Assembly: GCA_964019135.1 (NCBI GenBank)
Contig: OZ025248.1
Span: forward strand, 44,323,670 to 44,387,669
Direction: 5' to 3'
DNA: 64,000 nt
DNA from: Arenicola marina
Taxonomy: Eukaryota > Annelida > Polychaeta > Arenicolidae
Shown piece after piece: positions 1 through 53,464 of the stretch. Made by a program: the position numbers and the translations under genes. Each line of letters opens with the position of its first letter. Position 1 is the first letter of the stretch. The notes under the pieces were generated by a model. It did not search any database. It was not told where the DNA came from and saw only the letters and a program-made list of their open reading frames with translations.

Positions 1-2460
1 TGAAGAGTTTGTGGACATACTTGTACACATTGACCATGTCTCCTCTATGGCATCAGTAGGCTAAAGTTGGCAGTCTTGGTGGCTCGCCTCTGGATAGATT
101 TCATCGCGTCTATATGTTTCTGGAGGTATGGTGCCCACACAGCCACTCTGTACTCTATGATTGGTCTCACTAATCCTTTATACAGGCACACCAATTTCTT
201 GGTCCAGCTATTGATAAGATCAACTTATGATACCAAGCAAGGTGTTTGCTTTGGTTACAGTCTTGTGAATGTGTGTTTCAAAGATCTTTTTGGAGTTTAG
301 CTCACCTTTAGAGGTTGATGGGCATCGGTCTTGTCCTCATGCATTGTGTAATTATACTCTGGGTGGTGTCTTCCAACTCTCAATATTTCACATTTTCCTG
401 GGTGGAACTTTAATTGCCAGGTTCGTGACCAATCTTGGAGTCTGTCTATGTCCTCCTGGAGCACTCTGCATTTGTCCTGGCAGTTGACTTGGCAGTATGG
501 TTTTGTGTCATTCGCGAACAGTTTGATACAGCTTTGTACCACATTTGGCATGTCATTGATATAGAGTACGAAGAGGACTGGCCCCAGGACACTGCCTTGC
601 AAGATGCCACTTGTGACCTCTGCATGCCCATGGGGAGTAAGTCAGCATTTATCCTCACTCTTTCTTTGCAGCCGAGGAAGAATTGTTGGATCCAAACATG
701 GATATCTCCTGACAGCGCGTAGCTGTTTAACTTTAATAGGAGATGTTGGTGGGGAACAGAGTCAAAAGCCTTTATGAAATCCATGTATATAGCATCAATG
801 CATCCTCCCTGGTCTAGAATCTTGGTCCATTCCTCGATGGTCTCTAGCAGTTGGGTCACACATGACCATCCGTTAAGAAAGCTGTGTTGATCTTTTGAGA
901 AGAGGTTGTTAGCTTCCATATTTCGCATGATGTCATCTCTGGCAAAGGATTCCATTATTTTGCATGCCACTGCTGTCAGGTCTGTAGTTGGCCGCTGAGT
1001 GCCTACTACCATTTTAAAAAATGGGTGATATCTGTCCGGTTTTCCAACCGAAAAAGACATTTAGCATGTTAGCTTTTTCACTGTCTGTTTGTAAAAGGAT
1101 ACCATCACGCTTTCTACCTCCTTGGTGATACATTTTTTCAAGTGTTTTGACTGCTTGGCAGGTAGCATATCTAGCTTGTTTTTTTGTGTATTCAGAGTAG
1201 TCTTGCTTGTGTTTTGTCTCCAGATATTTCTTCCATGTATAGTGTTTCTTCTTAACTTTGGCCAGGGTTTTGGCATCTATTCAAATTGGCTTAAACTTTC
1301 TGCAATTTGCTCGTTTTAGTTTTGGGTATTGCGGTTCCCTGCAGGGCAGTTTCCAGTATATTCAAGGTCTCTTGTATATTTTTTCCTCCCAATTCCTGCT
1401 CAACATACTCCTCATTTTGTCATAGTTTCCCTTGTCGTGTTTGAAATGACTGGCAGTTGGTGGTGGTTGGGCAATAGTGCATTTATATTGAAATAATAAC
1501 ATCAGATGATCGCTTGCCCCCAAGTCGGTACCATAGACCAGGGCCGAACTATTTGGCCCCCGGCGTTCGAACTTACGGACCCAGGTCGCTCACCATGCCT
1601 TCCTCATTTGAATATATGAGGTCCAGCAAGTTTGGTGTTTGGTTTAGTCTATATCTTGTTGGCTCTTTCACATGTTATAAGAAAGGCATCTTGGCTGCTC
1701 TCCAGAAAGGTAAAAGGGAAATTATCTGTATCCGAGTCACATGCATTTATCATTTTTCCAATCGTTCTCTGGTTGGTTAAAATCTCCCATTATAAGCAGA
1801 GGTGATTTATTTGTTTCTCCAATAGCCTCCATGAGTTTGTTGATCTTCTCGTTATTTTCATCCTTGCTGTTGGGGCTCCTATATATACATCCAATCACTA
1901 ATGTTTCATTTTCCTTGCACGGTAGCTTGATCTTTACCCATATTGACACGTTGAACCCTATTTGGTCATTGATGTCGCAGTGTGCTGCTTTCATTGACTG
2001 ATCAATTTATAGGGTGATGCCCCATCCTCCTTGCTCAATGTGGGTGAAAATGTCGTAGCCACGTTGATCGATATTTTACAGGGTTGGATTGGGAATCTAC
2101 AATCGTTTTGGCTTTATTCCATTGATAGCAATAACATATGAGGTTGCTCCTGTACAATATGAGCTTGCAACTCTGTATGTTTGTTCAAAAGGGAATCTGC
2201 ATTGGTGTATATACATTTGAAGTGCTGAAACATCTTTGTATCTACAGGGCTATATACAGATGATCGAATATTGGGTTGTTTACTTTTGGATTGCCTCTGT
2301 GCCTTGCCCTTCACCTCCTCGAAAGGGCTTCCTTTTGACAATTTACCAATCAATATTTCAGCTTGTTATATGACAGGCATAGGATTCAAACCTTTTGTTA
2401 ACTCTCTGCGTGGTGGCATGGCAGTCGATATGATTGGCTCTGAAAAATAACCCGTTTCAT
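1..2460 (-). mobile_element. Decayed CR1-like LINE, endonuclease plus reverse transcriptase, 3' end outside window
   Basis: Minus-strand translations give a non-LTR retrotransposon ORF2 in the expected order. At 2353-2114 lies an endonuclease start (KCIYTNADSLLNK). At 1994-1737 lies mid-endonuclease (IYRSPNSKDEN, then IMGDFNQPENDW). At 1276-1061 lies the linker before the RT. At 1060-446 lies RT motif A (YMDFIKAFDSVPHQHLL). At 602-297 lie GSVLGPVLFVLYINDMP and an altered catalytic box, FANDTKPY instead of FADD. The pieces lie in different frames with internal stops, so the copy is dead. The 5' limit is set loosely by the tandem repeat at about 2483; the 3' end is before base 1. It probably lies in an upstream intron or 5' flank of the ABCB7 gene. 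The CR1/L2 clade is inferred from the endonuclease and RT wording. Confidence 0.85.
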
Positions 2461-3327: not shown

Positions 3328-6300
3328 GTAAGTATAATCTGAGAAGCTGCCAGCTTTTATGAATTATTTCTTTAAAAGCAATGATTCTGTTTCCACATTT
3401 CTTAATGATATTCTCTGATAAAATGTTGATCTATTTTGTTTTCTAGCAAGTTGGAACAAAAGAGAGCCACTTTCAGTTACCAAATAAGCTTTCTTGAGAT
3501 TCATGTATATACCAGTACATGTACATTTATTCATCAATTAAATTTAAACAAGTTCCAATCATCAGACTTCTCTAAAATTCAATGGCATCTTTTATTGTTG
3601 TAGCTCAAGCACAAGGCTTCCGGAAAAAGAGATTGCTTTCACCCAGGTGCCAGCGACATAGGGGCAAATTTACTGAAAACCAAGAAGGAAGTCAGCGGTT
3701 GGGTGATTGTCAAGTCCATGCTCAGCTATGTATGGCCAAAGGATAAGCCAAGCATTCGAGCCCGAGTTGTACTCGCCCTGTCACTTCTCATTGGCGCCAA
3801 AGTGAGTGCTGGAGTTAACCATCCTATATATCAACGATTGGAACACAGGTACTGGCTATATAAGGTTGCTGTCATGAGAGGAACAAAAGTGCATGGAAGT
3901 CTCTTCCAATCTTCGGACAGGAGAAAAATATAATGATCATACTTTGTGTTGTATATGGTGATTATTTGAGCGTTTTGACTGTTATAGAACTTTAACTAGT
4001 ACTTAAAAAACGCAATGCATGAGAAATATATGGAATCGATAACTTTTTCCATATATTTTGAGCTTTCTGATCACCCCCCCTCCCCCCTTGGAGCTTAACA
4101 TTGAATTATGCATTCCATTATTTGTATTGAAATTGGCAAGTTGTGACAGTTAGGGGCGATCAGTTAGCTCGCCCTAGCTCAGCTCTGCTTGACTGATTAC
4201 ACCGTGACACTTAGCGGAGTAAAGCGAGTTAATATTAACAATAACTGTTCATTATCAAGATAATGCAGTTTTTGCGTTCATTGTCAAGATAATGCACAGT
4301 TTTTGCGTTCATTTGTCAAGATATTGCACTGTTTTCTCGTTTATTATTTAAATAACGCACACTTACGTCAATAAAACACGGTTAGGTCTGTTTCCCGGTG
4401 CATTATTCTAGAGAATGAACTCTTCAGACAAAGGCGTGACGTCGCACAATTTTGTAAACTATGCTAAATTATTATGGTCGATTATTGATTAATATTGGTC
4501 GTGTTATGTAAGATGTTCATTGAGACATAGCAATGTATATATCAGCCACGTGGCATGTATTTCCTGGGTTCAGCAAGTCACGCCTCTCCCTGTATTCCTT
4601 ACTGTCCCCTCTCGCTGCAGGTTCTCAATGTCCAAGTGCCCTTCCTCTTCAAGTATATCGTGGACAGCTTAAATGATCCTGATTGTGTGATGAACATGAC
4701 CACACCTGCCAACACGATCATCACTGCAGCCACTGCTCTGGTTATCGGATGTAAGCTGAAGTCATTATCACAACAACCAGTAATGCTTCCTCTTTAAATG
4801 TATGTAATAGTGGTGACTGACATATACATCGGTAGTTCTACGTGTATTCATGAACAAAATGGTAACAAAGGATCAACGTGAAATTTATTTTATTATTTTA
4901 CAATTGTCGCATGTTTAGCCATCTCGAAACTTGAGTACCGGTAACTGGAGGCACGATTTAGTTCTCTGGTGACTATCAATTATGCATGACTACCGGACGG
5001 GAAAATAACATTTTATCTCTTCTTTTTTTTGGTGGGGGGGCGGGGGTTAATTCCGTGGTCGACACATGTTTCTCATAACCTTTCTAAGAAGGCGTACGTG
5101 TCAATATCATATCATGTTAAATTGACATATCAGTTCCCATGAGTTCCCACACGCATATTGTTTGTTGATAGACGGCCTGGCCAGAGCCGGCGCGGCTGCC
5201 ATGAACGAGCTCCGCAACGCGGTGTTTGCCAAGGTAGCCCAGGACTCAATTCGTCGCGTGGCGCGTCGTGTCTTCCTTCACCTCCACAACCTCGATCTGT
5301 CCTTCCATCTGTCGCGCCAGACCGGCGCTTTGTCCAAGGCCATCGACAGGGGCACCAGGTGAGTAAGCGTCCCGGGAAAGTCGGCTCGTATAGAGCGTGA
5401 ATATTACCTTGTTTTCCTTAACTGATGGATTGCATCTAATACATGTATAAATTTCTACGGTATGCGTAAGGATATAAGATGATACAGCTCCTGCACCGTC
5501 GTCCGGACTTCGTGAGCTGTTTGTCTTCTGATCCAAGGCCGCCTATGTTATATTTTAAGTCAAGAATCAGGTGCGATAATTGAGGTACCCCATGACTAGT
5601 TTGTGCGTATTAGTAGTATCCAGTATCAAAGATTGTCTAGAGTAGACAATCTTTGGTAGTTTAAAGTTCAACAGTGCTCTAAATGTTGTTAACTTATTTC
5701 AGGGGCATCAATTTCGTCTTGAGTGCATTGATATTCAATGTCGTCCCCACCATTTTTGAAGTAACTCTTGTGTCCTCCATCTTGGTAAGTAACGATTATA
5801 TGTACTGGACTCCCTATGTTTGACGAAATACTGCCAAATACATTTGATGGCGTCTCATTTGTTTATTTTGTATTTTGCAAAGTATATGTGATGGCGGTTT
5901 ATTTGTTTTCTGTGAAATAAGTTTTTGATGTAAACATTTACTATGTGGAGCTTAGTTGCCAAGTAGACGCGCCCCGACACCTGCTAGTGAGGCATGGTTT
6001 ATGCAACTAATATTGCAACTAATATCAGCACCTTAGCCGTTAGAAGAACTCCATTACCACTGAACAGTGTTATTTGTGTGTATTTTACAGTATTACCAAT
6101 GTGGAGGAAAGTTTGCGCTGGTGTCTGTGGGTTGTATAGGCGTCTATGCTGCATTCACACTAGGAATAACGGCGTGGAGGTAAGAAACCCTGCTTCTAAA
6201 CTATAACTAGAGAAGATTCACTAACAAATAACTGTTTTTTTTTGTAATGCACGAAAATAGTACTAGTACAGTTCGGCTGTGGTTTGTTTTCGCGCTTGGA

Positions 6301-9300
6301 AATGTGCACAAACTAAGTGCTGCTGATGAATAATTCGCATGATATCCAGAAAGACTGTTTTGGCGCAAACCAAAACCGACCAATTCCAAAACAGCCGCGT
6401 GTCAGTGAAGCAGGGCCCATGGGTTTGTTTGCCTCTCTGACGTATTTCCAGTGATGCGATACGATCCGCCCGCTCGCTGAAAATGGCTGTCTACATTTTC
6501 CGCGTGAGAGATGACATCGTATCAGATGTGTACTGTCTCAGCGTATATCGAAAATATCATCCATCGATAAAGACGAATATATTCCAGAGATTATTATAAA
6601 ACACAGTTGTTTTGGCGTATCACCAATCGGTAAAATTTTCGTGCAATTCCCTCCAGAACGCAATTCCGTGTACAGATGAATCAAGCGGACCAAGAGGCAG
6701 GGAACAAAGCTATTGACTCCCTTATCAACTACGAAACAGTAAAGGTTAGTTACATCGTATTGACCATCTGCTCCATATATGGTACTACGCGTCTGGCTAG
6801 TTATAGTCAAAAATCCCCATGACACAACAACATTTGTACGTAAGGCCTGGACTGGTAGACGAGAACCAACTAGCCGTATTTGGCGTGGCGGCCAAGGAGC
6901 GGATAAAACAACTGCGGAATGTGTAGTAGAAGACACTACCAATAATATTATGTTCTATTTGATATGGGCCGGGTAGTGAAATCCCTTGGCGTAGTTTAAG
7001 AGCGAGGGTATCAAACAATTTTGCCTCGAGTAAAAGGTGGCGGCAAAATCAGGCCATAGTCACAGAAATTGTGTTTTATCCCATACAGTATGCAGGATTC
7101 ACTGTAAAGTCATTTCTGTAGGTACATTATCAGTGAGATATATGAAAATGTCGGCGTGTTTTCAGTACTTCAACAACGAGAAGTACGAGGCTGATCGGTA
7201 CGACTACTACCTGTCCAAGTACGAACAAGCGTCCCTAAAGACCACAACTAGTCTAGCGCTCCTCAACTGGGGCCAAAACGCCATATTCAGCGCCGGTATG
7301 ACGGCCGTCATGTACCTGGCGGCCCAGCAGATCATGGCAGGTAATGAGTCATGTACCTGGCGGCCCAGCAGATCATGGCAGGTAATGAGTCATGTACCTG
7401 GCGGCCCAGCAGATCATGGCAGGTAATGAGTCATGTACCTGGCGGCCCAGCAGATCATGGCAGGTAATGAGTCATGTACCTGGCGGCCCAGCAGATCATG
7501 GCAGGTAATGAGTCATGTACCTGGCGGCCCAGCAGATCATGGCAGGTAATGAGTCATGTAACTGGCGGCCCAGCAGATCATGGCAGGTAATGAGTCATGT
7601 AACTGGCGGCCCGGCAAATCATGGCAGGTAATGAGTCATGTACCTGGCGGCCCAGCAGATCATGGCAGGTAATGAGTCATGTACCTGGCGGCCCAGCAGA
7701 TCATGGCAGGTAATGAGTCATGTACCTGGCGGCCCAGCAGATCATGGCAGGTAATGAGTCATGTACCGGGCGGCCCAGCAGATCATGGCAGGTAATGAGT
7801 CATGTACCTGGCGGCCCAACAGATCATGGCAGGTAATGAGTCATGTACCTGGCGGCCCGGCAAATCATGGCAGGTAATGAGTCATGTACCTGGCGGCCCA
7901 GCAGATCATGGCAGGTAATGAGTCATGTACCGGGCGGCCCAGCAGATCATGGGAGGTAATGAGTCATGTACCTGGCGGCCCAGCAGATCATGGCAGGTAA
8001 TGAGTCATGTACCTGGCGGCCTAGCAGATCATGGCAGGTAATGAGTCATGTACCGGACGGCCAGGCTAGCCAGCTAGATCATGAACTTCCTGAAAGAAGC
8101 TTTCTTCCCTTCCTTTGTATCAGAAACTTTGAATACTATAATAGTTACAGATATAGACATATGTGGCTTATCCCAATAAGCAATTAATTCATTGACGCAT
8201 TCCTGGCGTTTTCTCACATGGACGGAATACCTGTGCGTTGTGAGTGCCATAAAGATATCCTACAGTACCTTATAATGACACACTCATCCTAGTATTAATC
8301 TGTTCAATTTCTAGAAACTAAATGGAATTTTATCACAACAGGGAACATGACGGTCGGGGACTTGGTCATGGTGAACGGACTGCTTTTCCAGCTCTCCATT
8401 CCCCTGGGTTTCCTTGGGTCCGTTTACAGGGAGGTTCGACAGTCACTGATTGACATGCAGTCCATGTTCAGCCTCCTTGACCTGAAGACGGACATCAAGG
8501 TTTGTCCTCATTACTCCGTTCAACCTTAAAGCTGGTCATACAACAATAAGTCACCTACATGTATTGCATACAAGAACCCATGTACCTCATTTCTATTCAA
8601 CACATTTCTCCAGTTTCTCATCGAAAAATATTGCGGTCTGAGTGATTTAAAAACAGTGTTTGCGTCTTTTTGCTGCGTGATCACTGTTGTTTGATTCTTG
8701 AACTCGCGGTGTCCGCACTAACGTGTCATACTCAATAGATACGTCTTGTATAGTCTGTCATGTATTTTACATGTATAAAATTATGCTATTACTTTACGGC
8801 CTATGTCATGACCAAGCACGAACACAACCAGACAGCATGGGTTTCACATGAAGAAGAAGCCTTTATTACACGTCACACCCTCTTTTATAGGCAGTACACC
8901 TGGTGGCCAGTGAAGGCATACAATGCAAATTCCACCTGGTGTATGACCATTACAACACCTTCATCGCCCAAAACAATATAAGTCATAATGACTAGTATAT
9001 AACATAGTATATACGCGTTGAAAGACGTATTTACAATGACAAGTTTGCGTCCGATGGCTTATCGAGTGTCAGTACACGAGCGAGTTATTGGCGCAGACCG
9101 ACGCCTTGGTCTGCGATCTGTATCTGCCCCGTATCATGTCCTTCTCGCACTCACTTTGCTGCGAACCATTGTAACGCCAGTGCTGGAACTAGCAAAAACA
9201 TCGATTTGGCATCTCTCAGGGTGAAAGTTTGTTGCTCCTCGTGCTAGATGGGTTTCTCTGAGCACAAGTGTCCAATCTGCTGTCCGAGCCTTTAGGCAAG

Positions 9301-12300
9301 GCTAGGATGGTTGATAAACTCATCTCGCACTGGAACCATTGCGCTATGCCTATCGTCTGTTCACCACAGTGCAATCAGTATTGGTTCCCCTCCTGCAGAG
9401 CGTGTCTGACGCGGCACTGCTGACCGTCAACCCCACTACGGCGACCGTGGAATTCGAGAACGTGGGCTTCCACTACATGGAGGGCAAGGAGATCCTGCAA
9501 GGCCTCTCCTTCACCGTGCCCGCCGGCAAGAAGGTGGCCATCGTGGGCGGCAGCGGCTCAGGGCAAGTCACAGTAACAGTAACCGCCGCGGGGTGACGTG
9601 CAGGCATTGGGACTGGGATTCTGCATAGGTCTTCTCGGCAATGTCTTCACAGCCGGTCCTGCAATGCGCCCAGATTGCCCAGGGAAACATGCCCATTATT
9701 ATGACTGTAGAATCGGGTGTGCTTTTATTATATAAAGATTATTTTAAACTAAATTGTTTGTTACACCCGTTTACGCAAAACGGATGTAACATGAACATGT
9801 GATTGTGCATAAGCCTTTGCACAATGCACCTATTCCAATGCACAATAGTGCATTTCTGAGCCAGTATCAATACTACATTGCCAACGTTATTTGATACTGT
9901 ATATATAACTTATAAATATTCGCTTTTTCCTTTCGTGTACAGGAAATCAACCATAGTGAGATTGTTGTATAGGTTCTACGATCCTCAAAGTGGCAAGATA
10001 AGAATCAACGGTCAAGAGATCAACAAAGTGAACCTTGAATCATTGCGACATGTCATCGGTGTTGTGCCCCAGGTAAGACTCCTGACGTCATGTATACATA
10101 CGAAATGTCATCGGTGTTGTGCCCCAGGTAGGGCTCCTGACGTCATGTATACATACGACATGTCATCATGGTTGTGCCCCAGGTAAGACTCCTGACGTCA
10201 TGTATACATACGACATGTCATCCGGGTCGTGCCCCAGGTAAGACTCCTGACGTCATGTATACATACGACATGTCATCGGGGTTGTGCCCCAGGTAAGGCT
10301 CCTGACGTCATGTATACATACGACATGTCATTGGGGTTGTGCCCCAGGTAAGACTCCTGACGTCATGTATACATACGACATGTCATATGGGTTGTGCCCC
10401 AGGTAGGGCTCCTGACGTCATGTATACATACGACATGTCATCGGGGTTGTGCCCCAGGTAAGACTCCTGACGTCATGTATACATACGACATGTCATCGGG
10501 GTTGTGCCCCAGGTAGGACTCCTGACGTCATGTATACATACGACATGTCATCGGGGTTGTGCCCCAGGTAAGACTCCTGACGTCATGTATACATACGACA
10601 TGTCATCGGGGTTGTGCCCCAGGTAGGACTTCTGACGTCATGTATACATACGACATGTCATCGGGGTTGTGCCCCAGGTAAGACTCCTGACGTCATGTAT
10701 ACATACGACATGTCATATGGGTTGTGCCCCAGGTAGGACTCCTGACGTCATGTATACATACGACATGTCATCGGGGTTGTGCCCCAGGTAAGACTCCTGA
10801 CGTCATGTATACATACGACATGTCATCGGGGTTGTGCCCCAGTTAAGACTCCTGACGTCATGTATACATACGACATGTCATCGGGGTTGTGCCCCAGGTA
10901 AGACTCCTGACGTCATGTATACATACGACATGTCATATGGGTTGTGCCCCAGGTAGGGCTCCTGACGTCATGTATACATACGACATGTCATCGGGGTTGT
11001 GCCCCAGGTAAGACTCCTGACGTCATGTATACATACGACATGTCATCGGGGTTGTGCCCCAGGTAGGACTCCTGACGTCATGTATACATACGACATGTCA
11101 TCGGGGTTGTGCCCCAGGTAAGACTCCTGACGTCATGTATACATACGACATGTCATCGGGGTTGTGCCCCAGGTAGGACTCCTGACGTCATGTATACATA
11201 CGACATGTCATCGGGGTTGTGCCCCAGGTAAGACTCCTGACGTCATGTATACATACGACATGTCATCGGGGTTGTGCCCCAGGTAAGACTCCTGACGTCA
11301 TGTATACATACGACATGTCATATGGGTTGTGTCCCAGGTAGGGCTCCTGACGTCATGTATACATACGACATGTCATCGGGGTTGTGCCCCAGGTAAGACA
11401 CCTGACGTCATGTATACATACGACATGTCATCGGGGTTGTGCCCCAGGTAAGACTCCTGACGTCATGTATACATACGACATGTCATCGGGGTTGTGCCCC
11501 AGGTAAGACTCCTGACGTCATGTATACATACGACATGTCATCGGGGTTGTGCCCCAGGTAGGACTCCTGACGTCATGTATACATACGACATGTCATCGGG
11601 GTTGTGCCCCAGGTAAGACTCCTGACGTCATGTATACATACGACATGTCATCGGGGTTGTGCCCCAGGTAGGACTCCTGACGTCATGTATACATACGACA
11701 TGTCATCGGGGTTGTGCCCCAGGTAAGACTCCTGACGTCATGTATACATACGACATGTCATCGGGGTTGTGCCCCAGGTAAGACTCCTGACGTCATGTAT
11801 ACATACGACATGTCATCGGGGTTGTGCCCCAGGTAAGACTCCTGACGTCATGTATACATACGACATGTCATATGGGTTGTGCCCCAGGTAGGGCTCCTGA
11901 CGTCATGTATACATACGACATGTCATCGGGGTTGTGCCCCAGGTAAGACTCCTGAGGTCATGTATACATACGACATGTCAGCGGGGTTGTGCCCCAGGTA
12001 GGACTCCTGACGTCATGTATACATACGACATGTCATCGGGGTTGTGCCCCAGGTAAGACTCCTGACGTCATGTATACATACGACATGTCATCGGGGTTGT
12101 GCCCCAGGTAAGACTCCTGACGTCATGTATACATACGACATGTCATCAGGGTTGTGCCCCAGGTAAGACTCCTGACGTCATGTATACATACGACATGTCA
12201 TCGGGGTTGTGCCCCAGGTAGGGCTCCTGACGTCATGTATACATACGACATGTCATCGGGGTTGTGCCCCAGGTAAGACTCCTGACGTCATGTATACATA

Positions 12301-15300
12301 CGACATGTCATATGGGTTGTGCCCCAGGTAGGGCTCCTGACGTCATGTATACATACGACATTTCATCGGGGTTGTGCCCCAGGTAAGACTCCTGAGGTCA
12401 TGTATACATACGACATGTCAGCGGGGTTGTGCCCCAGGTAGGACTCCTGACGTCATGTATACATACGACATGTCATCGGGGTTGTGCCCCAGGTAAGACT
12501 CCTGACGTCATGTATACATACGACATGTCATCGGGGTTGTGCCCCAGGTAAGACTCCTGACGTCATGTATACATACGACATGTCATCGGTGTTGTGCCCC
12601 AGGTAAGACTCCTGACGTCATGTATACATACGACATGTCATCGGTGTTGTGCCCCAGGTAAGACTCCTGACGTCATGTATACATACGACATGTCATCGGG
12701 GTTGTGCCCCAGGTAAGACTCCTGACGTCATGTATACATACGACATGTCATCGGGGTTGTGCCCCAGGTAAGACTCCTGACGTCATGTATACATACGACA
12801 TGTCATCGGGGTTGTGCCCCAGGTAGGACTTCTGACGTCATGTATACATACGACATGTCATCAGGGTTGTGCCCCAGGTAAGACTCCTGACGTCATGTAT
12901 ACATACGACATGTCATCGGGGTTGTGCCCCAGGTAGGACTCCTGACGTCATGTATACATACGACATGTCATCAGAGTTGTGCCCCAGGTAAGACTCCTGA
13001 CGTCATGTATACATACGACATGTCATCGGGGTTGTGCCCCAGGTAGGGCTCCTGACGTCATGTATACATACGACATGTCATCAGGGTTGTGCCCCAGGTA
13101 AGACTCCTGACGTCATGTATACATACGACATGTCATCGGGGTTGTGCCCCAGGTAAGACTCCTGACGTCATGTATACATACGACATGTCATCAGGGTTGT
13201 GCCCCAGGTAAGACTCCTGACGTCATGTATACATACGACATGTCATATGGGTTGTGCCCCAGGTAGGGCTCCTGAGGTCATGTATACATACGACAAAAGA
13301 AAATAAAACCTGCATTACGCTATAGTTCTATCTTTGGCATAAGAGGTGGGTGGGGGGGGGTGGGGCTATTTCAATATGATATGTATTAATATATTGTATA
13401 TTAATATTGTATTAATATTAGATATACCGGTACATGTGTATACATGTATAAGTTTATCACCATTATTTAACTTCAATTTAAGTTTTAAATAAGTTGCAGT
13501 TATGTTTAAGACAATTAAGTGTCAGATAACTTGTGTGATAATTCCATGAACTTCAAAGCCTTCCGTGCAATCACCTTTGTGATGGAAATAAAAGAGAGTA
13601 AGCCCAAGTAATCAGGTGTAAAAAGGCAAGAGAATTGACAATGAGATTAAAAGTAAATACTTCAATATTATTTGTAACAGATGCAGCCCAAAGCTGTATG
13701 CGTTTATTCAGTTTCAAGAGCATTTTTCCTTGCTTTATCGCATTTGCATCACATGAGGTGTGACGGGCTTGAGGCCTGAGAAGCTCTGTTAGGTATGCTG
13801 ATTTCCAATATTTAACTTTCATTAAAGTTAATTGTCTAAGGCATTATAGTTATCATCCCTAAACTGTGCAATACATCCTAAACTGTAAATTCTGAAAGTT
13901 ATAAGTATCTAGAATGGGGGAGTGCGCGCGATCCGGTCCTGACGGAGTGAGCAGTGGCGTCTGGATCCAGTGCCTGTGTGCGCGGTCGGTCGGCCGAGCC
14001 GGTGAATTTCGGCCAATCGGAGCGTCCGCTCGGGCGTAATCTACAGGGATTGGATAGTGGACCTCAATGGGCGCGCGAGGTGCACGCCGTGATCAGGAAA
14101 GTGCCGCGGGTGAATCTGGGGTTGGGGGTCAGGCGAGGGTGATAGGAGAAGAAAGGGTTGGGGCTGAAAAGGGTGAAAAGCACCGCTTGCCTTCATAATG
14201 CCCTCTAATTACTACAGTAGCAGCAATTAGTACATAATTTCTGAAATTCATGGGAGCACAATTTTTTTTCGTCAAAACATGAAATGGAATAATATGTAAG
14301 AAATATGTAGATGCATACATAATCTCACAACCTTGTAAATCCTTCCATCTATGGCTTATGATAAAACAGATACCTGTACCTGGTGTAACACATGGGACGT
14401 AGCCTCGGGGGACACTGTTCGGTTGTCATGGACGCACCGCTGCCTACGCCCCCCCCCCACCCCTCTCGCCCTTAGGTCGCGCGGCCTCTATGGATGTACA
14501 CCGCCTTGGCCTGGGTGACCCCGAGGCACTCGGGCAGAGATCAGCCGCTCGTGTGTACTTACAAGTCTAGCAGCAACTTCGCCACTTGTTCGTTGCTGCA
14601 GATTCGATGCCGCGTCTTCATTCATTCTTATTCTTGATTGATTGGCGATTATGAATACGGCCCCAGAGCACTCCATGAGAGCGCTGTAACCCACTGAGCT
14701 ACCGGGCCGGCCCCTAGATCCGGATCCGGACGAGGTGACGTTTCGGCGTATAATTCGCTCGATATCGCATGTACAGTCACAGTCGATTCTAAAATGTTCA
14801 AGATGCACCTAACCGCCGATTTTCGTTTTCCTTCTCAAGCTATGCTTGACGGTTTCGTTGGGTTTTTGTTTGTCTTATTTATCAGTTTATTTCTCAGTTC
14901 AAGACATAAAATGGCGTGTTGACGTGTACCACCCCCCTGACCTGTATGTTTGGGAGTTCAGTCACCAGCTTACAACTTACTAATGGGCAGCCTGGTGTGT
15001 GTTAATCACTTGACACATTACACTTCCCACAGGACTCAGTGTTGTTTCACGACTCGATCTTCTACAATCTGAAGTACGGCAAGATAAACTGCGATGACGA
15101 AGAGGTGTACGAGGCGGCCAAAATGGCGGATATCCACCAGGCCGTCCTCAACATGCCGAAGCAATACGACACCCAGGTTGGAGAGAGGGGACTCAAGCTC
15201 TCGGGTGAGCATGGACAGGTTACGCCATGGAGACAGGACGAGATTCGATTCGAGGTCCGAGGCGCGCTAGCCCCTAGTATTGTCTGGTCGACGAATCAAT

Positions 15301-16756
15301 TTTTATTGGGTCCTCTCTCCGGCTAAAGCTACAGCGTCCTCCAACACTGAAATGGTCTAGCGAGCAGAGGCCTCGGACTGATATTTACGAATCTGCCGAT
15401 AACAGTAGATTAGTAGATACTAATTTTATTGATGTTTCAATGGTTTAACGTCGCAGCTGTAGTGTCATGTGTTAAGCAGAGCACGTGTTTCTTATTTGTG
15501 GAGCGGTCTCAAGGAAATGATTTAGTTGTGGTTAATTGTTGTGGAAAGAAGCTGAAAAAAAGACACCGTCTTGCACAGTTTAGGTGCGATATATGGAAGG
15601 CGTGAATGAAGGGAAAAGCGCTTGAGATTATATTGAAATAGAACACAATGGAAAAGAGCGCGTACGTGAGTTTCCAAGTTTGAAAGAAACTGTACTTCCT
15701 GATGTACTTTGATAATTGGATTCAGCTCTGGATTTATTCACAAAAGTAAAGCGAATGAAGTGAAAAGTGAAATGAAAAGAACCAAACTGCCTGCCTGAGT
15801 CCGGAATGCATCATATGTGATTATATTATGTCTTTCCTTGAGCTATTCTAACGCTTCGTTTAGTATGTGAATGTGATCGGTTTGCTGTGGTCGACGTACA
15901 GGAGGTGAGAAGCAGAGGGTTTCCATCGCCCGGGCGATCCTGAAGAATCCCCCGATCCTGATCTACGACGAGGCCACATCGTCCCTGGATTCCATCACTG
16001 AAATGGTACGTAATGTTGTCATGGTGCCATATCCTTTAGACCGCGGTTGCGTTGTAATGGATAGCGTTTTACAGTTGGCCGTAGGAGTACCGTAGAACCG
16101 CCACTGCGTACAAAAGCGTTTCCATAAATAACCAAACAACGGGATTTTTCACACCGCATAAACACGCAACGGCGGTTCTACGGTATAGTCTAGGTCCGGC
16201 GGTTTAAAGGATATTCAAATAATGGATGGCAATCTAGTAAAACCTCAAATGGCCAATGTGTTATACTCCTCAATAATATGTAATGTATGCAAGTTACGTT
16301 TTAATATTTGTTTAACTGCTCCAGAAAATCCTGAACGCCTTGAAGCGTGTGACGGAGAACAGGACGACCATCGTGATCGCGCACCGACTCTCGACCGTGG
16401 TGGACGCGGACGAGATTCTCGTGCTGAAGGACGGTCACGTGACTGAGCGGGGCACGCACAACCAGCTACTGGGTCAGGCCGACAGCATGTACGCCGACCT
16501 CTGGCGGCAGCAGAACATGGCGGCGCTGCAGCAGATGGAGGCCCAGGCGCACGGCGTGGATCCGGAGACAGGGACAGCGAGCGGACTGGATCCGGAGACA
16601 ATTACAGAGCATGGGGTGGATCCGGAGAGGGCGGTGGTGAGCGGGCTGGACCCAGAGACAGGGGCAGGGACTGAGGTAGATCCGGAGAAAGGGGCCGTGA
16701 ATCGGGGGGACGGGCACGGAGGAACAGGGAGCGGGGAGGGGACGAAGGCAGCTTGA
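3256..16756 (+). CDS. ABCB7: ABCB7 ortholog: mitochondrial ABC half-transporter, 14 exons visible, N-terminus missing
   Basis: Exons 3256-3327, 3604-3801, 4621-4750, 5172-5358, 5703-5784, 6091-6179, 6657-6744, 7166-7340, 8342-8499, 9399-9562, 9943-10072, 15033-15204, 15902-16005 and 16325-16756 join in phase into 726 residues plus stop. Residue order matches animal ABCB7 throughout: [87 protein letters not shown]. The nucleotide-binding domain is complete: Walker A GGSGSGKST, Q-loop VVPQ, TQVGERG, signature LSGGEKQR, Walker B ILIYDE, D-loop SSLD, H-loop IAHRLST. In known family members this half-transporter dimerises in the inner mitochondrial membrane and exports a glutathione-linked sulfur/iron-sulfur species needed for cytosolic Fe-S assembly. 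The presequence exon(s) are upstream or unrecognised. Oddities: a GC-AG intron inside Walker A, two introns opened by splice-donor minisatellites, and a repeat-built C-terminus. No frame breaks are seen. Confidence 0.96.
3604..3801 (+). CDS. ABCB7: ABCB7 exon, start of membrane domain
   Basis: 66 codons between TTGTAG and GTGAGT. Encodes the conserved run [17 protein letters not shown] followed by the first transmembrane helix [11 protein letters not shown]. Confidence 0.95.
4621..4750 (+). CDS. ABCB7: ABCB7 exon, first membrane loop
   Basis: Acceptor CTGCAG, donor GTAAGC, ends in phase 1. Encodes [18 protein letters not shown] and the loop [19 protein letters not shown], matching the family. 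Confidence 0.95.
5172..5358 (+). CDS. ABCB7: ABCB7 exon, intracellular coupling region
   Basis: Encodes [20 protein letters not shown] then [18 protein letters not shown] and AIDRGTR, among the most conserved stretches of ABCB7/Atm1. The split tyrosine (T|AC) and arginine (AG|G) codons at its edges fix both splice sites. Confidence 0.97.
5703..5784 (+). CDS. ABCB7: ABCB7 exon, transmembrane helix
   Basis: Encodes [20 protein letters not shown] then TLVSSIL; ends in phase 0 at GTAAGT. Confidence 0.95.
6091..6179 (+). CDS. ABCB7: ABCB7 exon, transmembrane helix
   Basis: Encodes [20 protein letters not shown] then [10 protein letters not shown]. The arginine codon is split AG|A across the next intron. 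Confidence 0.95.
6657..6744 (+). CDS. ABCB7: ABCB7 exon, glutathione-site region
   Basis: Encodes [20 protein letters not shown] then SLINYETVK. In yeast Atm1 structures the equivalent RxxxNxxD-type segment lines the glutathione pocket; that role is inferred here from the family. Confidence 0.95.
7166..7340 (+). CDS. ABCB7: ABCB7 exon whose 3' end seeds the 41-bp array
   Basis: Encodes [20 protein letters not shown] through [16 protein letters not shown] to QQIMAG. The last 33 bases and the donor GTAATG are repeated in the following intron. Only the first donor (7341) joins the next exon in the family's reading frame. Confidence 0.95.
7308..8062 (+). repeat. 41-bp minisatellite of exon end plus splice donor, 18 copies
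   Basis: The unit is the exon 8 3' end (GTACCTGGCGGCCCAGCAG, then ATCATGGCAG) followed by GTAATGAGTCAT. Donor GTs run from 7341 to 8038, exactly 17 x 41 bp apart, so there are 18 donor-like junctions and no indels. Every unit carries TGAGTCA, the consensus AP-1 site. The last unit decays into GTACCGGACGGCCAGG. Reading past the real donor meets an in-frame TAA in the third unit (ending at 7426). Confidence 0.97.
8342..8499 (+). CDS. ABCB7: ABCB7 exon, last transmembrane helices
   Basis: Encodes [20 protein letters not shown] then [20 protein letters not shown] and LLDLKTDIK. The initial glycine is split G|GG with the exon before the 41-bp array. Confidence 0.96.
8800..9398. other. ABCB7 intron 9, no gene seen
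   Basis: I see no exon here. The stretch at about 8810-8990 has a minus-strand AATAAAGG in a compact block that might be an old repeat, but it has no matched ends. Confidence 0.5.
9399..9562 (+). CDS. ABCB7: ABCB7 exon, start of nucleotide-binding domain, GC donor
   Basis: Encodes [20 protein letters not shown] then [20 protein letters not shown] and the first part of Walker [11 protein letters not shown]. The A-loop tyrosine is in FHYMEG. The exon ends TCAGG and the intron starts GCAAGT. A GC donor is required because the next exon supplies G-AAA-TCA (GKS) only in this phase. Confidence 0.95.
9943..10072 (+). CDS. ABCB7: ABCB7 exon, Walker A lysine to Q-loop
   Basis: Begins with the rest of Walker A (KST), then [20 protein letters not shown] and ends RHVIGVVPQ. 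The Q-loop glutamine is the last codon, CAG, directly before the donor GTAAGA. The last 27 bases of this exon plus that donor are the seed of the 55-bp array. Confidence 0.96.
10046..13294 (+). repeat. 55-bp minisatellite of exon end plus splice donor, 59 copies
   Basis: The unit is CGACATGTCATCGGGGTTGT then GCCCCAG (exon 11 end), followed by GTAAGACTCC, TGACGTCA and TGTATACATA (intron start). Donor-like junctions run from 10073 to 13263, exactly 58 x 55 bp, so 59 copies without a single indel. Variants fall into GTAAGACT, GTAGGGCT and GTAGGACT types that tend to alternate, and one copy near 10841 has lost the GT. Almost every unit holds a perfect CRE octamer TGACGTCA; a few read TGAGGTCA. 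The array ends at CGACA followed by unique AAAAGAAAATAAA; the same CGACA marks the start in the exon. Confidence 0.98.
13295..15032. other. Rest of ABCB7 intron 11
   Basis: No coding exon is seen. It holds a G-run near 13350, an AT-rich stretch at 13370-13440, a GC-rich stretch at 13925-14130 that I cannot identify, and a SINE-like block at about 14480-14720. Confidence 0.6.
14480..14722 (-). mobile_element. tRNA-derived SINE-like block
   Basis: On the minus strand, GGCCCGGTAGCTCAGTGGGT then TACAGCGCTC resembles a tRNA 5' end with an A box, and GCATCGAATC about 90 bases later resembles a degenerate B box. The A-to-B spacing is longer than in a tRNA, so it is at best a diverged or interrupted SINE. 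No tail or target duplication was found. Confidence 0.5.
15033..15204 (+). CDS. ABCB7: ABCB7 exon, helical subdomain of the NBD
   Basis: Encodes [20 protein letters not shown] then [20 protein letters not shown] and [14 protein letters not shown]. The signature motif LSGGEKQR is split G|GA between this exon and the next. Confidence 0.97.
15902..16005 (+). CDS. ABCB7: ABCB7 exon, signature to D-loop
   Basis: Encodes [20 protein letters not shown] then [14 protein letters not shown]: the remainder of the ABC signature, Walker B with its catalytic glutamate, and the D-loop. Confidence 0.97.
16325..16756 (+). CDS. ABCB7: ABCB7 terminal exon with H-loop and repeat-built tail
   Basis: Encodes [20 protein letters not shown] then [19 protein letters not shown] (H-loop histidine) and the usual DLWRQQ region. 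About 60 residues follow that are unlike vertebrate ABCB7. Five tandem 10-residue units start at 16554 ([50 protein letters not shown]), then a Gly-rich end and TGA at 16754-16756. The cysteine-containing tail of vertebrate ABCB7 is absent. Confidence 0.95.
16554..16703 (+). repeat. In-frame 30-bp coding repeat, 5 copies
   Basis: Five 30-bp units centred on GTGGATCCGGAG encode x(V/L)DPE decapeptides in the ABCB7 C-terminus. The length is a multiple of 3, so copy changes would not break the frame. Confidence 0.85.
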
Positions 16757-33639: not shown

Positions 33640-34745
33640 CCCAGAACATTTTAGGAAGGTTACATTATAACCTAAAATTAATCAACGTTATTATAACCCT
33701 TAACATAATCACCGTTCCCAAAACGTAAAAAACCTTCAAAACGGAAGGTACCCTTATCACCTAAAATTCCCAGAACGTTCTTAGAAGGAAAGATTATAAC
33801 CTAAAATTAGGCAACATTCCCAGAACGTTTTTGGAAGGATGCATTATAACCGTAAAGTTCTTCAACGTTCCCAGAACGTTTTTGGAAGGTTACATTATAA
33901 CCTGACATTATTCACCGTTCCCAGAACGTTTTTAGAAGGTTACATTATAACCTAAAATTAATCAACGTTCTCAAAACGTTTTTGGAAGGATCCGTTTTAA
34001 CGCTTGAAATATTCACCGTTCCCAAAACGTTTTTGGAAGGAAAGATTATAACCTAAAATTAAGCAACGTTGCCGGAACGTTTTTGGAAGGATGCATTATA
34101 ACCCTAAAATTATTCAACGTTCCCAAAACGTTTTTGGAAGGTTACATTACAACCTAAAAATTATCAACGTTCCCAAAACGTTTTTGGAAGGTTACATTAT
34201 AATCCTAAATTTTTTCAACGTTCCTAGAACGTTTTTGGAAGGTTACATTATAACCTAACATTATTCATCGTTCTCAAAACGTTTTTGGAAGGTTACAGTA
34301 TAACCCTAAAATTATTCAACGTTCCCAGAACGTTTTTGGAAGGTTACATTACAACCTAAAAATAATCAACGTTCTCAAAACGTTTTTGCAAGGATCAGTT
34401 ATAACCCTTAAAATATTCACCGTTCCCAAAACGTTTTTGGAAGGAAAGATCATAATCTAAAATTAGGCCACGTTTCCAGAACGTTTTTGGAAGGATGCAT
34501 TATAACCCTAAAATTATTCACCGTTCCCAGAACGTTTTTAGAAGGTTACATTATAACTCTAAAATTAATCAACGTTCCCAAAACGTTTTTGGAAGGTTAC
34601 ATTACAACCTAAAATTAATTAACGTTCCCAAAACGTTTTTGGAAGGTTACATTATAATCCTAAAATTATTCAACGTTCCCATAACGTTTTTGGAAGGTTA
34701 CGTTATAACGATAACGAAGTGATAACTTTCGGGTAACGTTAGCAT
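33640..34745. repeat. Right subterminal AACGTT array, about 58-bp period
   Basis: About 19 units of the form CAACGTTCCCAAAACGTTTT then TGGAAGGTTACATTATAACC and TAAAATTATT. The units are not homologous to the left array apart from the AACGTT/AAACGTT kernels. The terminal 20 bases (TTAGGTGTTTGCTGGG) form the right inverted-repeat end. Confidence 0.92.
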
Positions 34746-39907: not shown

Positions 39908-42900
39908 CTGAAGGCATAGAAAGAAAGTATATTATTGGTAGATGGAATGTTAAATTTAGTGCAATAGCCACGGTTAAACAAAATGAACACAGGACGGTGT
40001 GGAAACAGATTAAAGACTGTTCCCTCGATCTGCACGACTAGGCGGGTCCTTAATACGTTAGCAATATCTTTATGAATTCCTAATTACCATCGATATCATT
40101 CGCCTGATATCAACATAACGTACGTAGTAATACAACATGCAGTTTCTGGTACGACGTGTGTATATAGTGTCCGTTTGGGCACAAACAACTTACCTTATCT
40201 ATCTTGGGCATCAAGAACAGAATGCAAGCGCCAATGATTGGCGGTATTCCCCCAACCAGGAATGCGATTTGATAGGTTCCCATCATGTCGTAGAGTAGAC
40301 CTGTAAACAACAGGTTTAGTGGTGTATATAACACAGATATATACGATGCATACACGTGTACTGACACAAATGTCAGTACACGTGTACCCGATGGTACCAT
40401 ATGAAAAGCTTAACAAATTTCAACAAAATGTAAACATTGGACAAGCAGTTCATAAGCCCGCGTTATCCTAAGGCTAATAGAAATATTTAGTTCAGGCGGC
40501 CTCCGCCCCTTCGTTTATTTTTAATTTGTTGAACTGGTGACTTATGTACCTTAAATCATGCACCCTATATTAAAGTAAGAAATAGATACTTCCCATGGCA
40601 TACATCTGAGCATGCGCATTACTAGGCGCTATCTATATAGCTGGATCTCAATGGGTTCTAGGCATCGGCATGTTTTTTTATGGCGCGTGTTCCCCTGTGT
40701 TCAATGAAGGTACATCGTTCATATCTTTGTATTTGGCGATACGTGAGCTTTTGCTGACTTAATTAAACACCTGAGGCCTCACTCATTTTGTCCGAATATA
40801 TAGTGAAACAAAGCGTTTTGCGAAACTGCATTTACGAACGCATGGCTTCGTGGCGCAGTCGCTAGATGGCGACAGCTCATTGGAAATTTTTTTATCTTTT
40901 GTACTAGGTTAAAATGTAGTCTACAAAATCAGAATTACATTTATGTTTATTTTGTTTCCCTAATCATGCAGGGGCATAGGCAGGGACTTGATCAAGTGCA
41001 CGCACCTGCTGTGGATGAAATTTACTTCTGAACAACAGGATTGCACGTGCTAAATTAAACAACCCAATGTGTACGCACGTGCGTACGTGCGTACGGCTGG
41101 CTACGCCCCTGCTAATTATCAACATGTATTGCATTAATAGTTATATTACTAGGTTTTCATCTTCTTATTAAACTCATTATTACTGTTATATGTATATGAA
41201 CAACGGACAACACTTACCGGCTAGAGGCGGTCCCGTTGTCATTGGCAATGATTGGAGTCCCAGAAGGCACCCGATGCCCTGAGCGGCTGCCACCGGCCCC
41301 AGAAGGTCCGTGGCTATAGGTCCTATGAGGCAGATGAAGCAGCCGTCGCAGAAGCCCATGACCAGCACTATGGCGGCCAGCGTCCCAAAATTGGGCGCGA
41401 AAGGGATACAAGCAGTGGCGATGCCTATAAGGAGGAATGCGCACTGTTGCATGAGGACCCTGTTGATATTGGGCATGTCCGCGACCTTCCCGCAGATCAA
41501 CCGGCTGACGCCGGACGTTGCCCCGATGCACATTACGAGGATCTCTGCATTGGCTTCCGGAAACACATCATTTGTGTGTTTGACCTGTAGGCATCAAGAC
41601 AACACATGCACACTTCCATCGAAAGCAACAACTTTATCTCCCACAATTAAATCCTTCGCTAAAAATAAGCTTTTGTATATGAATGATCACGAATTAGATT
41701 TGGAATGTCCAGATGTCCTACGGGGTACCCATATCAACTTGTGACAATGGTATGGGTTGTCCAGCATTCTAACCCAGTGGCGAATCCAGGAATTCAAGAA
41801 AGGAGGGCGGGGGAACTATTTCTATTCAGTGAGAAACTTGCGGCCGAGGAGGGGGTGGGGGGCTGAAAGTGAAAGAACGGTCGAAGTACTGGTCGGTCAA
41901 CAGTTCACACAGTCAAACCGCGTACCAACCGATTCAACAATTTTTACTACCGCCACCCAGCGAACATACCATTTGGGCATCTCGCGTCATAGCGTCATGC
42001 ATACAAGCCACCACTCTCTGCCTTCGACTCACTCCGCGAGGGCTCCGTTATATTTATGTTTTCGCTAGCTACTTCTTCAATGCATTTTCACACTCGCTCG
42101 CCAGAGCGGCGCTGCGCAAATTGATAGGGAAAATGCGCCGCGCATTTCTACAAATTAGTGCCGGGGACCCAGCCTAAGCCTAATAAGACACGGTATCAGC
42201 TTGATGGAAAGAAAGAGTTCAGTCTCAGTGAAAACTTTTTTGAAAAGGTACAAGATGTTTTTTGCTGTATTAATTACGCGAAGCTCGTTATTTTTATGTT
42301 TTATTCTTGAAAATTATACTGCTGCAAGAAATTACAGCTGATATTTAACCGTTTTCCAGAATCTTGAAATTTGCCCCCACCGACAGCAGCGGTAAAAGCG
42401 GAGCTTGCGTAGCGCCACCCCGCGGGGGGCATCTGAACGCTGATTGGCTGAATTATGCTCGACGCTGATTGGTTGACAATTCCGAAATCTTTAAGTTGAT
42501 CGAAACTTTAGAACAAGCGCTAACCTATTATGCCGGGTTTACACGGTACGATCATTCTTACAATAGCCATAACAACGTGTCAAACCGCGTACCAACTGAT
42601 TCAACAATTTTCACTATCGCCCCCTAGCGAACATACCATTCGAGCATCATTTATAACGTCATACATACAAGCTACACATATGCTCATAATTAACTGTCAT
42701 AATGCAAACTATATAAACGTGATCGTCTGGACATGTGTCGATCAAACGCTGACTAGCCAAAACACTCGACGCTGATTGGTTTGACAATTCCCGAATCGTG
42801 GAGTTGATCGAAACTTTAGAACGTGCGCTAAGCTTACATTGCAATGCGTAGAAAACCGGCTCTCCAATTGCAGAGTTAGTCGAAACTTGATTTCCTGCAA

Positions 42901-52207: not shown

Positions 52208-52352
52208 TTAAGCCCGGTTCCCACGTTTTTCCTTTGATAATGCCTGTTGCACCCAGCTGATATCATTTTGTTTAGAATTTCAGAGGAAGGTCCTCCTGTT
52301 TCTCATGGATATTATAGGGTTCGGATGCTTAGCAGGACAGATGCCTCCGAAA

Positions 52353-53464
52353 GCCTGGCCACCGCTATACACCATAAAGCCCGGCCACCGCTATACACCA
52401 TAAAGCCCGGCCACCGCTATACACCATAAAGCCTGGCCACCGCTATACACCATAAAGCCCGGCCACCGCTATACACCATAAAGCCTGGCCACCGCTATAC
52501 ACCATAAAGCCTGGCCACCGCTATACACCATAAAGCCCGGCCACCGCTATACACCATAAAGCCTGGCCACCGCTATACACCATAAAGCCTGGCCACCGCT
52601 ATACACCATAAAGCCCGGCCACCGCTATATACCATAAAGCCCGGCCACCGCTATACACCATAAAGCCTGGCCGCCGCTATGCACCATAAAGCCTGGCCAC
52701 CGCTATACACCATAAAGCCCGGCCACCGCTATACACCATCAAGCCTGGCCACCGCTATACACCATAAAGCCTGGCCACCGCTATGCACCATAAAGCCTGG
52801 CCACCGCTATACACCATAAAGCCCGGCCACCGCTATACACCATCAAGCCTGGCCACCGCTATACACCATAAAGCCTGGCCACCGCTATACACCATAAAGC
52901 CTGGCCACCGCTATACACCATAAAGCCCGGCCACCGCTATATGCCATAAAGCCCGGCCACCGCTATGAACCATAAAGCCCGGCCACCGCTATACACCATA
53001 AAGCCTGGCCACCGCTGTACACCATAAAGCCTGGCCACCGCTATACACCATAAAGCCTGGCCACCGCTATACACCATAAAGCCCGGCCACCGCTATGCAC
53101 CATAAAGCCTGGCCACCGCTATACACCATAAAGCCCGGCCACCGCTATATACCATAAAGCCCGGCCACCGCTATACACCATAAAGCCTGGCCACCGCTAT
53201 GCACCATAAAACCTGGCCACCGCTGTACACCATAAAGCCCGGCCACCGCTATACACCATAAAGCCTGGCCACCGCTATACACCATAAAGCCTGGCCACCG
53301 CTATACACCATAAAGCCCGGCCACCGCTATACACCATAAAGCCCGGCCACCGCTATACACCATCAAACCTGGCCACTGCTATACACCATAAAGCCCGGCC
53401 ACCGCTATACACCATAAAGCCTGGCCACCGCTATACACCATAAAGCCCGGCCACCGCTATACAC
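52353..53464. repeat. 26-bp minisatellite, about 43 copies
   Basis: Unit GCCYGGCCACCGCTATACAC then CATAAA, repeated with few substitutions and no obvious indels. C/T at the fourth base alternates between copies. No exon or donor site in the unit. Confidence 0.97.

What the first reader, a model, noticed from the sequence alone, without database searches (positions are those of the whole stretch)
10046..13294. Fifty-nine tandem copies of an exon-end/5' splice site in ABCB7 intron 11
Seen: the 55-bp unit spans the last 27 bases of exon 11, the donor GTAAGA and the first 28 intron bases, and recurs 59 times with exactly 58 x 55 bp between first and last donor. Only the first donor keeps the ABCB7 frame: the second shifts it and a stop follows by 10186. 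The gene therefore presents about 58 decoy donors, each with exon-like context, before its long intron. CGACA at both edges suggests the first duplication used 5-bp microhomology. Inference: donor choice must favour the first site strongly, or U1 recruitment by the array may affect intron handling.
Basis: partly seen in the sequence, partly recalled or inferred. Interest (0 to 1): 0.82.

Follow-up and report, generated by a model that had tools for sequence, protein, structure and literature searches.

The report
Splice-site minisatellite in an annelid gene
In a segmented worm's ABCB7 gene, the place where an exon ends and an intron begins has been copied 59 times in a row, and similar copied splice sites turn up in other genes of the same worm; lancelets were already known to have this kind of repeat, but here it is longer and looks common.

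Summary
In detail: a gap-free 55-bp x 59 array (10046-13295) starts inside an ABCB7 exon and repeats its last 27 bases, the donor and intron start; 58 of 59 units keep GT. The host is an annelid by mitochondrial gene order. Tandem repeats across exon-intron boundaries are published from amphioxus as "mirages", with few copies where counts are given. This is the same kind in another phylum. Elsewhere in this genome an ALDH1L exon, four ABC-transporter exons and two CCT-chaperonin exons have their own donor arrays. Of 40 tested donors (this array excluded) 7 begin a tandem repeat, against 3.7% of background positions (P about 6e-4; weaker with stricter matching) and 1 of 28 acceptors. Minisatellites fill 41% of a 264-kb sample. 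Best reading: duplication across a splice junction seeded a minisatellite that grew in the intron and is tolerated because the copies are spliced out and the first donor is used. Donor use and any U1 role are untested. The newest part: 5' splice sites look like preferred birthplaces of minisatellites here.

The parts
9943..10072 (+). ABCB7 exon (from K-S-T of Walker A to GVVPQ), phase 0 at its 3' end; its last 27 bases are the exonic part of array unit 1
   Evidence: translation, acceptor and donor; PDB match to ABCB7
10046..13295 (+). 55-bp x 59 donor-spanning minisatellite (array B), plus a 5-bp partial unit CGACA at its right end
   Evidence: TRF; unit table
10073..10078 (+). first donor GTAAGA, the one that keeps the ABCB7 frame
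10073..15032 (+). inferred intron, 4,960 bp; about 65% of it is array B
   Evidence: acceptor and next exon start
7166..7340 (+). upstream ABCB7 exon ending [11 protein letters not shown]; its last 34 bases are in unit 1 of array A
   Evidence: tblastn; boundaries
7307..8062 (+). 41-bp x 18.4 donor-spanning minisatellite (array A), same kind as B, unrelated unit
   Evidence: TRF; unit table
15033..15204 (+). next ABCB7 exon ([12 protein letters not shown]...)
9399..9562 (+). preceding ABCB7 exon, ending in an apparent GC donor (AGG|GCAAGT)
   Evidence: boundaries; the GKST junction is then in frame

Best explanation
A stretch straddling the exon end was tandemly duplicated, probably through the 5-base direct repeat CGACA found in the exon and again at the far edge of the array. 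It then expanded by slippage or unequal exchange to 59 units in an annelid genome that is very rich in minisatellites. Only unit 1 belongs to the coding exon. Units 2-59 lie in the intron and leave with it when donor 1 is joined to the exon at 15033, so the array is tolerated. This is a 'mirage' in the amphioxus sense. Shown: structure, frame consequences, second array, recurrence at other exon ends, annelid host. Inferred: mode of duplication, use of donor 1, absence of a dedicated function.
For: Array and register. Unit 1 alone continues the exon's frame. Variants scattered through the array (units 1, 2, 47 and 48 share a T; a run of 6 units recurs 9 units later) fit internal turnover. Second array in the same gene. 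Donor arrays with unrelated units at an ALDH1L exon (L033; PDB match E 1e-24) and at a cysteine-rich exon (L036), at 4 of 15 ABC exon ends and 2 of 12 CCT exon ends. 72 arrays cover 108 kb of 264 kb sampled. Published mirages were reported not to disturb splicing (passages of PMC3087553; PMC3902484).
Against: No RNA data were available, so use of donor 1 is not shown. 36 other donors read GTAAGA like donor 1, so strength alone cannot explain the choice. If array birth were random, donors should not exceed the 3.7% background, yet 7 of 40 do, so random seeding plus tolerance may be incomplete. The microhomology idea rests on one array; array A ends in a longer imperfect partial unit.
Confidence: 0.8

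Rival explanations
1. 5' splice sites are active hot spots for minisatellite birth in this animal (a DNA- or transcription-linked process at donors), not just a place where random arrays survive. This extends the best explanation rather than replacing it.
For: 6 of 27 sampled exon ends, and 7 of 40 with the window's donors added (array B excluded), are the first copy of a tandem repeat, against 203 of 5516 background positions (P 4e-4 and 6e-4) and 6 of 170 nearby intron positions. Genome-wide, three spaced CAGGTRAG occur 26,176 times against 5,091 for the reversed motif, a larger excess than for single motifs (93,969 against 42,900).
Against: Small sample: two families plus two genes of the window. 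The excess weakens with stricter matching (3 of 27, P 0.10 at 26 of 30 and P 0.13 at 27 of 30). In 72 sampled arrays donor-like motifs are about as common as in shuffles (8 against 5.9, 3 against 2.6, 2 against 1.0 at rising cut-offs). Donors against acceptors is not significant (7 of 40 against 1 of 28, P 0.13). The genome-wide counts are per unit and dominated by large arrays.
Confidence: 0.35
2. The array is functional: the many donors recruit U1, or otherwise affect handling of this intron or transcription.
For: 57 extra GT donors in exon-like context; U1 binding to such sites is general knowledge (recalled).
Against: Unrelated units at other genes; the donors drift (20 of 59 units have G at donor +4, one has lost GT). 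No direct test was possible.
Confidence: 0.05
3. Units act as recursive-splicing ratchets: each has CAG|GT, so a wrongly kept block could be removed later and the junction restored.
For: 58 of 59 units have AG directly before GT, and 56 of 59 hold CTGAC, which resembles a branch point (recalled motif).
Against: Arrayed donors do not favour AG|GT: 3 of 6 against 12 of 21 non-arrayed, counted by eye. The pyrimidine stretch before the AG looks weak (not scored).
Confidence: 0.06
4. Assembly artefact: copy number inflated, or the array misassembled.
For: Tandem arrays are error-prone in assemblies; only one assembly is available.
Against: 21 distinct sequences among the 59 units, no N in the window and no indels, and independent arrays at other exons. 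A genome search with 161 bases from the array start matched only this array (28 places; the search scores only its best candidates).
Confidence: 0.05

Closest known systems
Amphioxus 'mirage' minisatellites (Adh3, globins BflGb6 and BflGb9, troponin C; PGBD5 compared with them)
   Same: Tandem repeat unit straddles an exon-intron boundary next to the authentic one; both 5' and 3' boundaries affected; minisatellite-sized units (Adh3 10-72 bp, globins 150-160 bp, PGBD5 60 and 108 bp) (passages of PMC3087553 and PMC3902484).
   Different: Host is an annelid, not a cephalochordate; 59 units against 6 and 3 in the two BflGb6 haplotypes and three of 108 bp in PGBD5; two arrays in one gene; boundary arrays at a measurable share of sampled exon ends.
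Intron gain by tandem duplication of an AGGT stretch (potato RdRp case PMC4974935, listing only)
   Same: Tandem duplication that includes AG|GT.
   Different: Here the copies lie in an intron between exons that together give ordinary ABCB7 coding; no new intron is apparent.
Earthworm metallothionein intron-1 minisatellites (PMC12783039, passages)
   Same: Annelid gene with large tandem arrays in an intron.
   Different: Units of about 180 bp; in the passages seen they are described inside the first intron, not across an exon end.

Membership tests
mirage (exon-intron boundary minisatellite) | repeat unit contains exon sequence, the splice site and intron sequence | tested here: met
   27 + 28 bases in array B; 34 + 7 in array A
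mirage (exon-intron boundary minisatellite) | the authentic boundary is one end copy, adjoining the real exon | tested here: met
   unit 1 continues the ABCB7 frame from 9944
mirage (exon-intron boundary minisatellite) | minisatellite-sized unit in tandem | tested here: met
   55 and 41 bp
mirage (exon-intron boundary minisatellite) | normal splicing persists | not testable with these tools
   no RNA data
mirage (exon-intron boundary minisatellite) | length instability between haplotypes or in soma | not testable with these tools
   one assembly, no reads
AGGT tandem-duplication intron gain | creates a new intron inside a former exon | tested here: inconclusive
   the exons on both sides match ABCB7/Atm1 without lost coding; the age of the intron position was not tested
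recursive splice sites | AG directly followed by GT | tested here: met
   58 of 59 units
recursive splice sites | use as acceptor and then as donor | not testable with these tools
   no RNA data

The most novel reading that the evidence does not exclude
In this annelid, 5' splice sites are hot spots for minisatellite birth: roughly one conserved intron in six begins with a tandem array of its own donor, through a process tied to donor DNA or its transcription, so the spliceosome constantly has to pick the first of many near-identical donors.
Probability: 0.35. Interest if true: 0.78.

Novelty: new member of a known kind. Interest (0 to 1): 0.6.

Why it matters
Dozens of near-identical donors in a row in a conserved gene are a natural test of how the spliceosome chooses among equal sites (first donor, exon definition, distance). 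If boundary arrays are as frequent as the sample suggests, the genome offers a large series with different units and copy numbers, and a second animal phylum in which to ask why tandem duplications cluster at splice junctions and whether they feed intron lengthening or intron gain.

Tried and rejected
Amphioxus as host: suggested by the mirage literature; a GFP family search was empty and uninformative; the mitochondrial gene order then showed an annelid. A first bacterial Atm1 protein came from a wrong frame and was replaced. Donor motifs enriched among all sampled arrays: not clearly seen. Preference of arrayed donors for AG|GT: not seen (counted by eye). RNA structure of exon end plus two units: not unusual (z -1.24). 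Acceptor arrays as frequent as donor arrays: 1 of 28; L059 looks like a gapped acceptor repeat but misses the criterion (17 of 30). The donor-containing array in L037 is not at an exon that I could recognise; the starts of the arrays in L034/L055 and L035/L056 were not reached. ARAGORN on the mitochondrial contig found only trnV. A Pfam scan of a 99-residue frame holding the last of three minus-strand window exons used as extra donors found nothing, so that gene is not identified.

Rows dropped: of 20 PF00005 hits 17 were fetched (the C325 hit and two C4 hits in one 732-residue open frame were left out); of the 17, L054 is not an exon and L051 nearly repeats L050, leaving 15. Of 49 PF00118 hits three in long intronless-looking frames and three C-terminal ones were excluded beforehand; the 12 best-scoring of the remaining 43 were fetched. 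Acceptor sides: 15 of 15 ABC exons, none of the CCT exons, and 13 in the window (one ABCB7 acceptor near 6657 was not included). Donors in the window: 14, of which array B is left out of the 7 of 40. In L074 and L075 the fetched stretch began close to the exon end, so 26 and 25 bases were compared instead of 30.

Full report
What is there. The window holds an ABCB7-type transporter gene on the + strand. Translated exons match PDB entries named ABCB7 best (E about 8e-87), and a bacterial Atm1 relative maps exons from about 3727 to 16642. Behind the exon 9943-10072 lies a 55-bp x 59.1 array, 10046-13295, without indels. Unit 1 is the real exon end (27 bases) plus donor and intron start (28 bases in all). 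The 59 units are in register: 58 keep GT; 37 read GTAAGA, 11 GTAGGA, 9 GTAGGG, 1 GTAAGG, 1 TTAAGA. The intron runs from 10073 to 15032, about 65% of it array.

Frame. Donor 1 is phase 0. Donors 2 and 3 shift the frame; donor 4 restores length mod 3 but the added block has a stop. The first stop on straight read-through is 10184-10186.

A second array of the same kind sits in the same gene: 41 bp x 18.4 at 7307-8062, made of the last 34 bases of exon 7166-7340 plus 7 intron bases. The two units are unrelated, so the events were independent (inference). In the window, 2 of 14 tested donors (11 in ABCB7, 3 in a minus-strand gene) and 0 of 13 tested acceptors are arrayed. Outside the two arrays, 0 of 292 positions in the ABCB7 gene begin a tandem repeat.

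Origin. CGACA occurs at the left edge in the exon and as the partial unit at the right edge (13291-13295), fitting a first duplication through 5-base microhomology (inference). Variants are spread through the array: 21 distinct unit sequences, and a run of six units recurring nine units later, as expected from slippage or unequal exchange (inference).

Host. The genome has 867 Mb in 762 contigs. Contig C762 (15,942 bp) is the mitochondrial genome. The protein genes identified lie on one strand in the order cox1, cox2, cox3, nad6, cob, atp6, nad5, nad4L, nad4, nad1, nad3, nad2, with trnV between nad4 and nad1. Pfam supports the names, with two weak points: nad6 scores below its cut-off (22.7 against 33.2) and nad2 matches only the general antiporter-type family, so these two names rest also on my reading. 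atp8 and the rRNAs were not mapped. nad6/cob after cox3, atp6 between cob and nad5, nad5 before nad4L/nad4, and nad3 between nad1 and nad2 are the annelid features given in PMC2639372 (passage). It is not the lancelet order (PMC2034537, passages). The species is unknown to me.

How general. In 264 kb (window plus 20 stretches evenly spaced over contig C1), 72 arrays with period 15 or more and at least 2.5 copies cover 108 kb, 41%. Donor-like motifs are not clearly enriched in those 72 units against shuffles (8 against 5.9, 3 against 2.6 and 2 against 1.0 at rising cut-offs; array B itself is among the hits). Genome-wide, three CAGGTRAG motifs 30-60 bases apart occur 26,176 times against 5,091 for the reversed motif, while single motifs are 93,969 against 42,900. 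These are unit counts, dominated by large arrays. Of five donor-containing arrays looked at, two begin at a coding exon end: an exon whose 50 residues match 10-formyltetrahydrofolate dehydrogenase (ALDH1L1; E 1e-24; Pfam Aldedh), with a 39-bp unit (L033), and a cysteine-rich exon (Lustrin_cystein, 24.9 bits, below its cut-off of 27; the exon before it matches Antistasin, E 1e-9), with a 34-bp unit that takes in only about the last three exon bases (L036). One is not at a recognisable exon (L037), and for two the start was not reached.

Exon ends taken without regard to repeats. I used exon hits of two conserved families found by profile search: 15 ABC-transporter exon ends (from 20 hits) and 12 CCT-chaperonin exon ends (from 49 hits). 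Criterion: the 30 bases around the donor recur with at least 24 matches within 230 bp downstream. 6 of 27 meet it: L038, L044, L047, L049, L074, L075. L038 is a paralogue's exon ending GVVSQ, by eye the position of our GVVPQ, with its own 60-bp unit. Background: 203 of 5516 grid positions without an upstream copy in the 20 C1 stretches (3.7%), P 4e-4; 6 of 170 intron positions beside the ABC donors. With the bootstrap upper background of 5.7% P is 0.004; at 25 of 30 matches 5 of 27 remain (P 0.004), at 26 and 27 of 30 only 3 of 27 (P 0.10 and 0.13). Adding the window's donors without array B gives 7 of 40 (P 6e-4; 0.007 with the upper background), against 1 of 28 acceptors; donors against acceptors P 0.13. 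So boundary arrays are common here, and an excess at donors is suggested but not proven.

Prior knowledge. [quoted passage not shown] PMC3902484 (one passage) adds troponin C and compares PGBD5. My searches showed me no report of such boundary repeats in annelids; they cover open-licence PMC papers only, I saw at most 20 listed rows each, and only the papers named here were opened for this question. Annelid intron minisatellites are described in earthworm metallothionein (PMC12783039, passages), there within the intron.

How it works, most likely. A boundary duplication is harmless if the exon's own donor is used, because everything after it leaves with the intron. Donor 1 gives a 130-nt exon; each later donor adds 55 nt, with frameshift or a stop in the cases checked. 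Use of donor 1 is inferred from coding conservation and from the amphioxus reports; nothing here measures RNA. U1 recruitment or recursive splicing cannot be excluded but have no support.

Verdict. The thing is a mirage-type minisatellite, a known kind, found here in an annelid with unusually many units and at a surprising share of sampled exon ends.

Noticed in passing
10046-13295: 56 of 59 units contain TGACGTCA, the CREB/ATF palindrome (recalled motif; count). Probably incidental.
   Followed up: no
9562-9570: The preceding ABCB7 exon ends in an apparent GC donor (AGG|GCAAGT).
   Followed up: partly
52350-53465, 61127-64000, 33767-34709: Other large minisatellites: 26 bp x 43, about 35 bp x 83 running to the window end, 51/101 bp; no exon relation seen at a glance.
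   Followed up: no
L014, L015, L017, L018 (contig C1): Whole or almost whole 10-kb stretches consist of one minisatellite each (34, 26, 51 and 52 bp units); 41% of the sampled DNA is tandem arrays.
   Followed up: partly
L063 (C12:42413759-42414359): Acceptor-side array: TGCTTGCAG|TAAGCC is repeated upstream of an ABC exon whose donor side (L044) is also repeated, so one exon has arrays at both ends.
   Followed up: partly
window 40193-46331, minus strand: A second gene: three exons that read to me like a membrane transporter, with ordinary donors without arrays; a Pfam scan of one piece found nothing.
   Followed up: partly
window 300-641, minus strand: A reading frame that looks to me like reverse transcriptase of a retrotransposon.
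   Followed up: no
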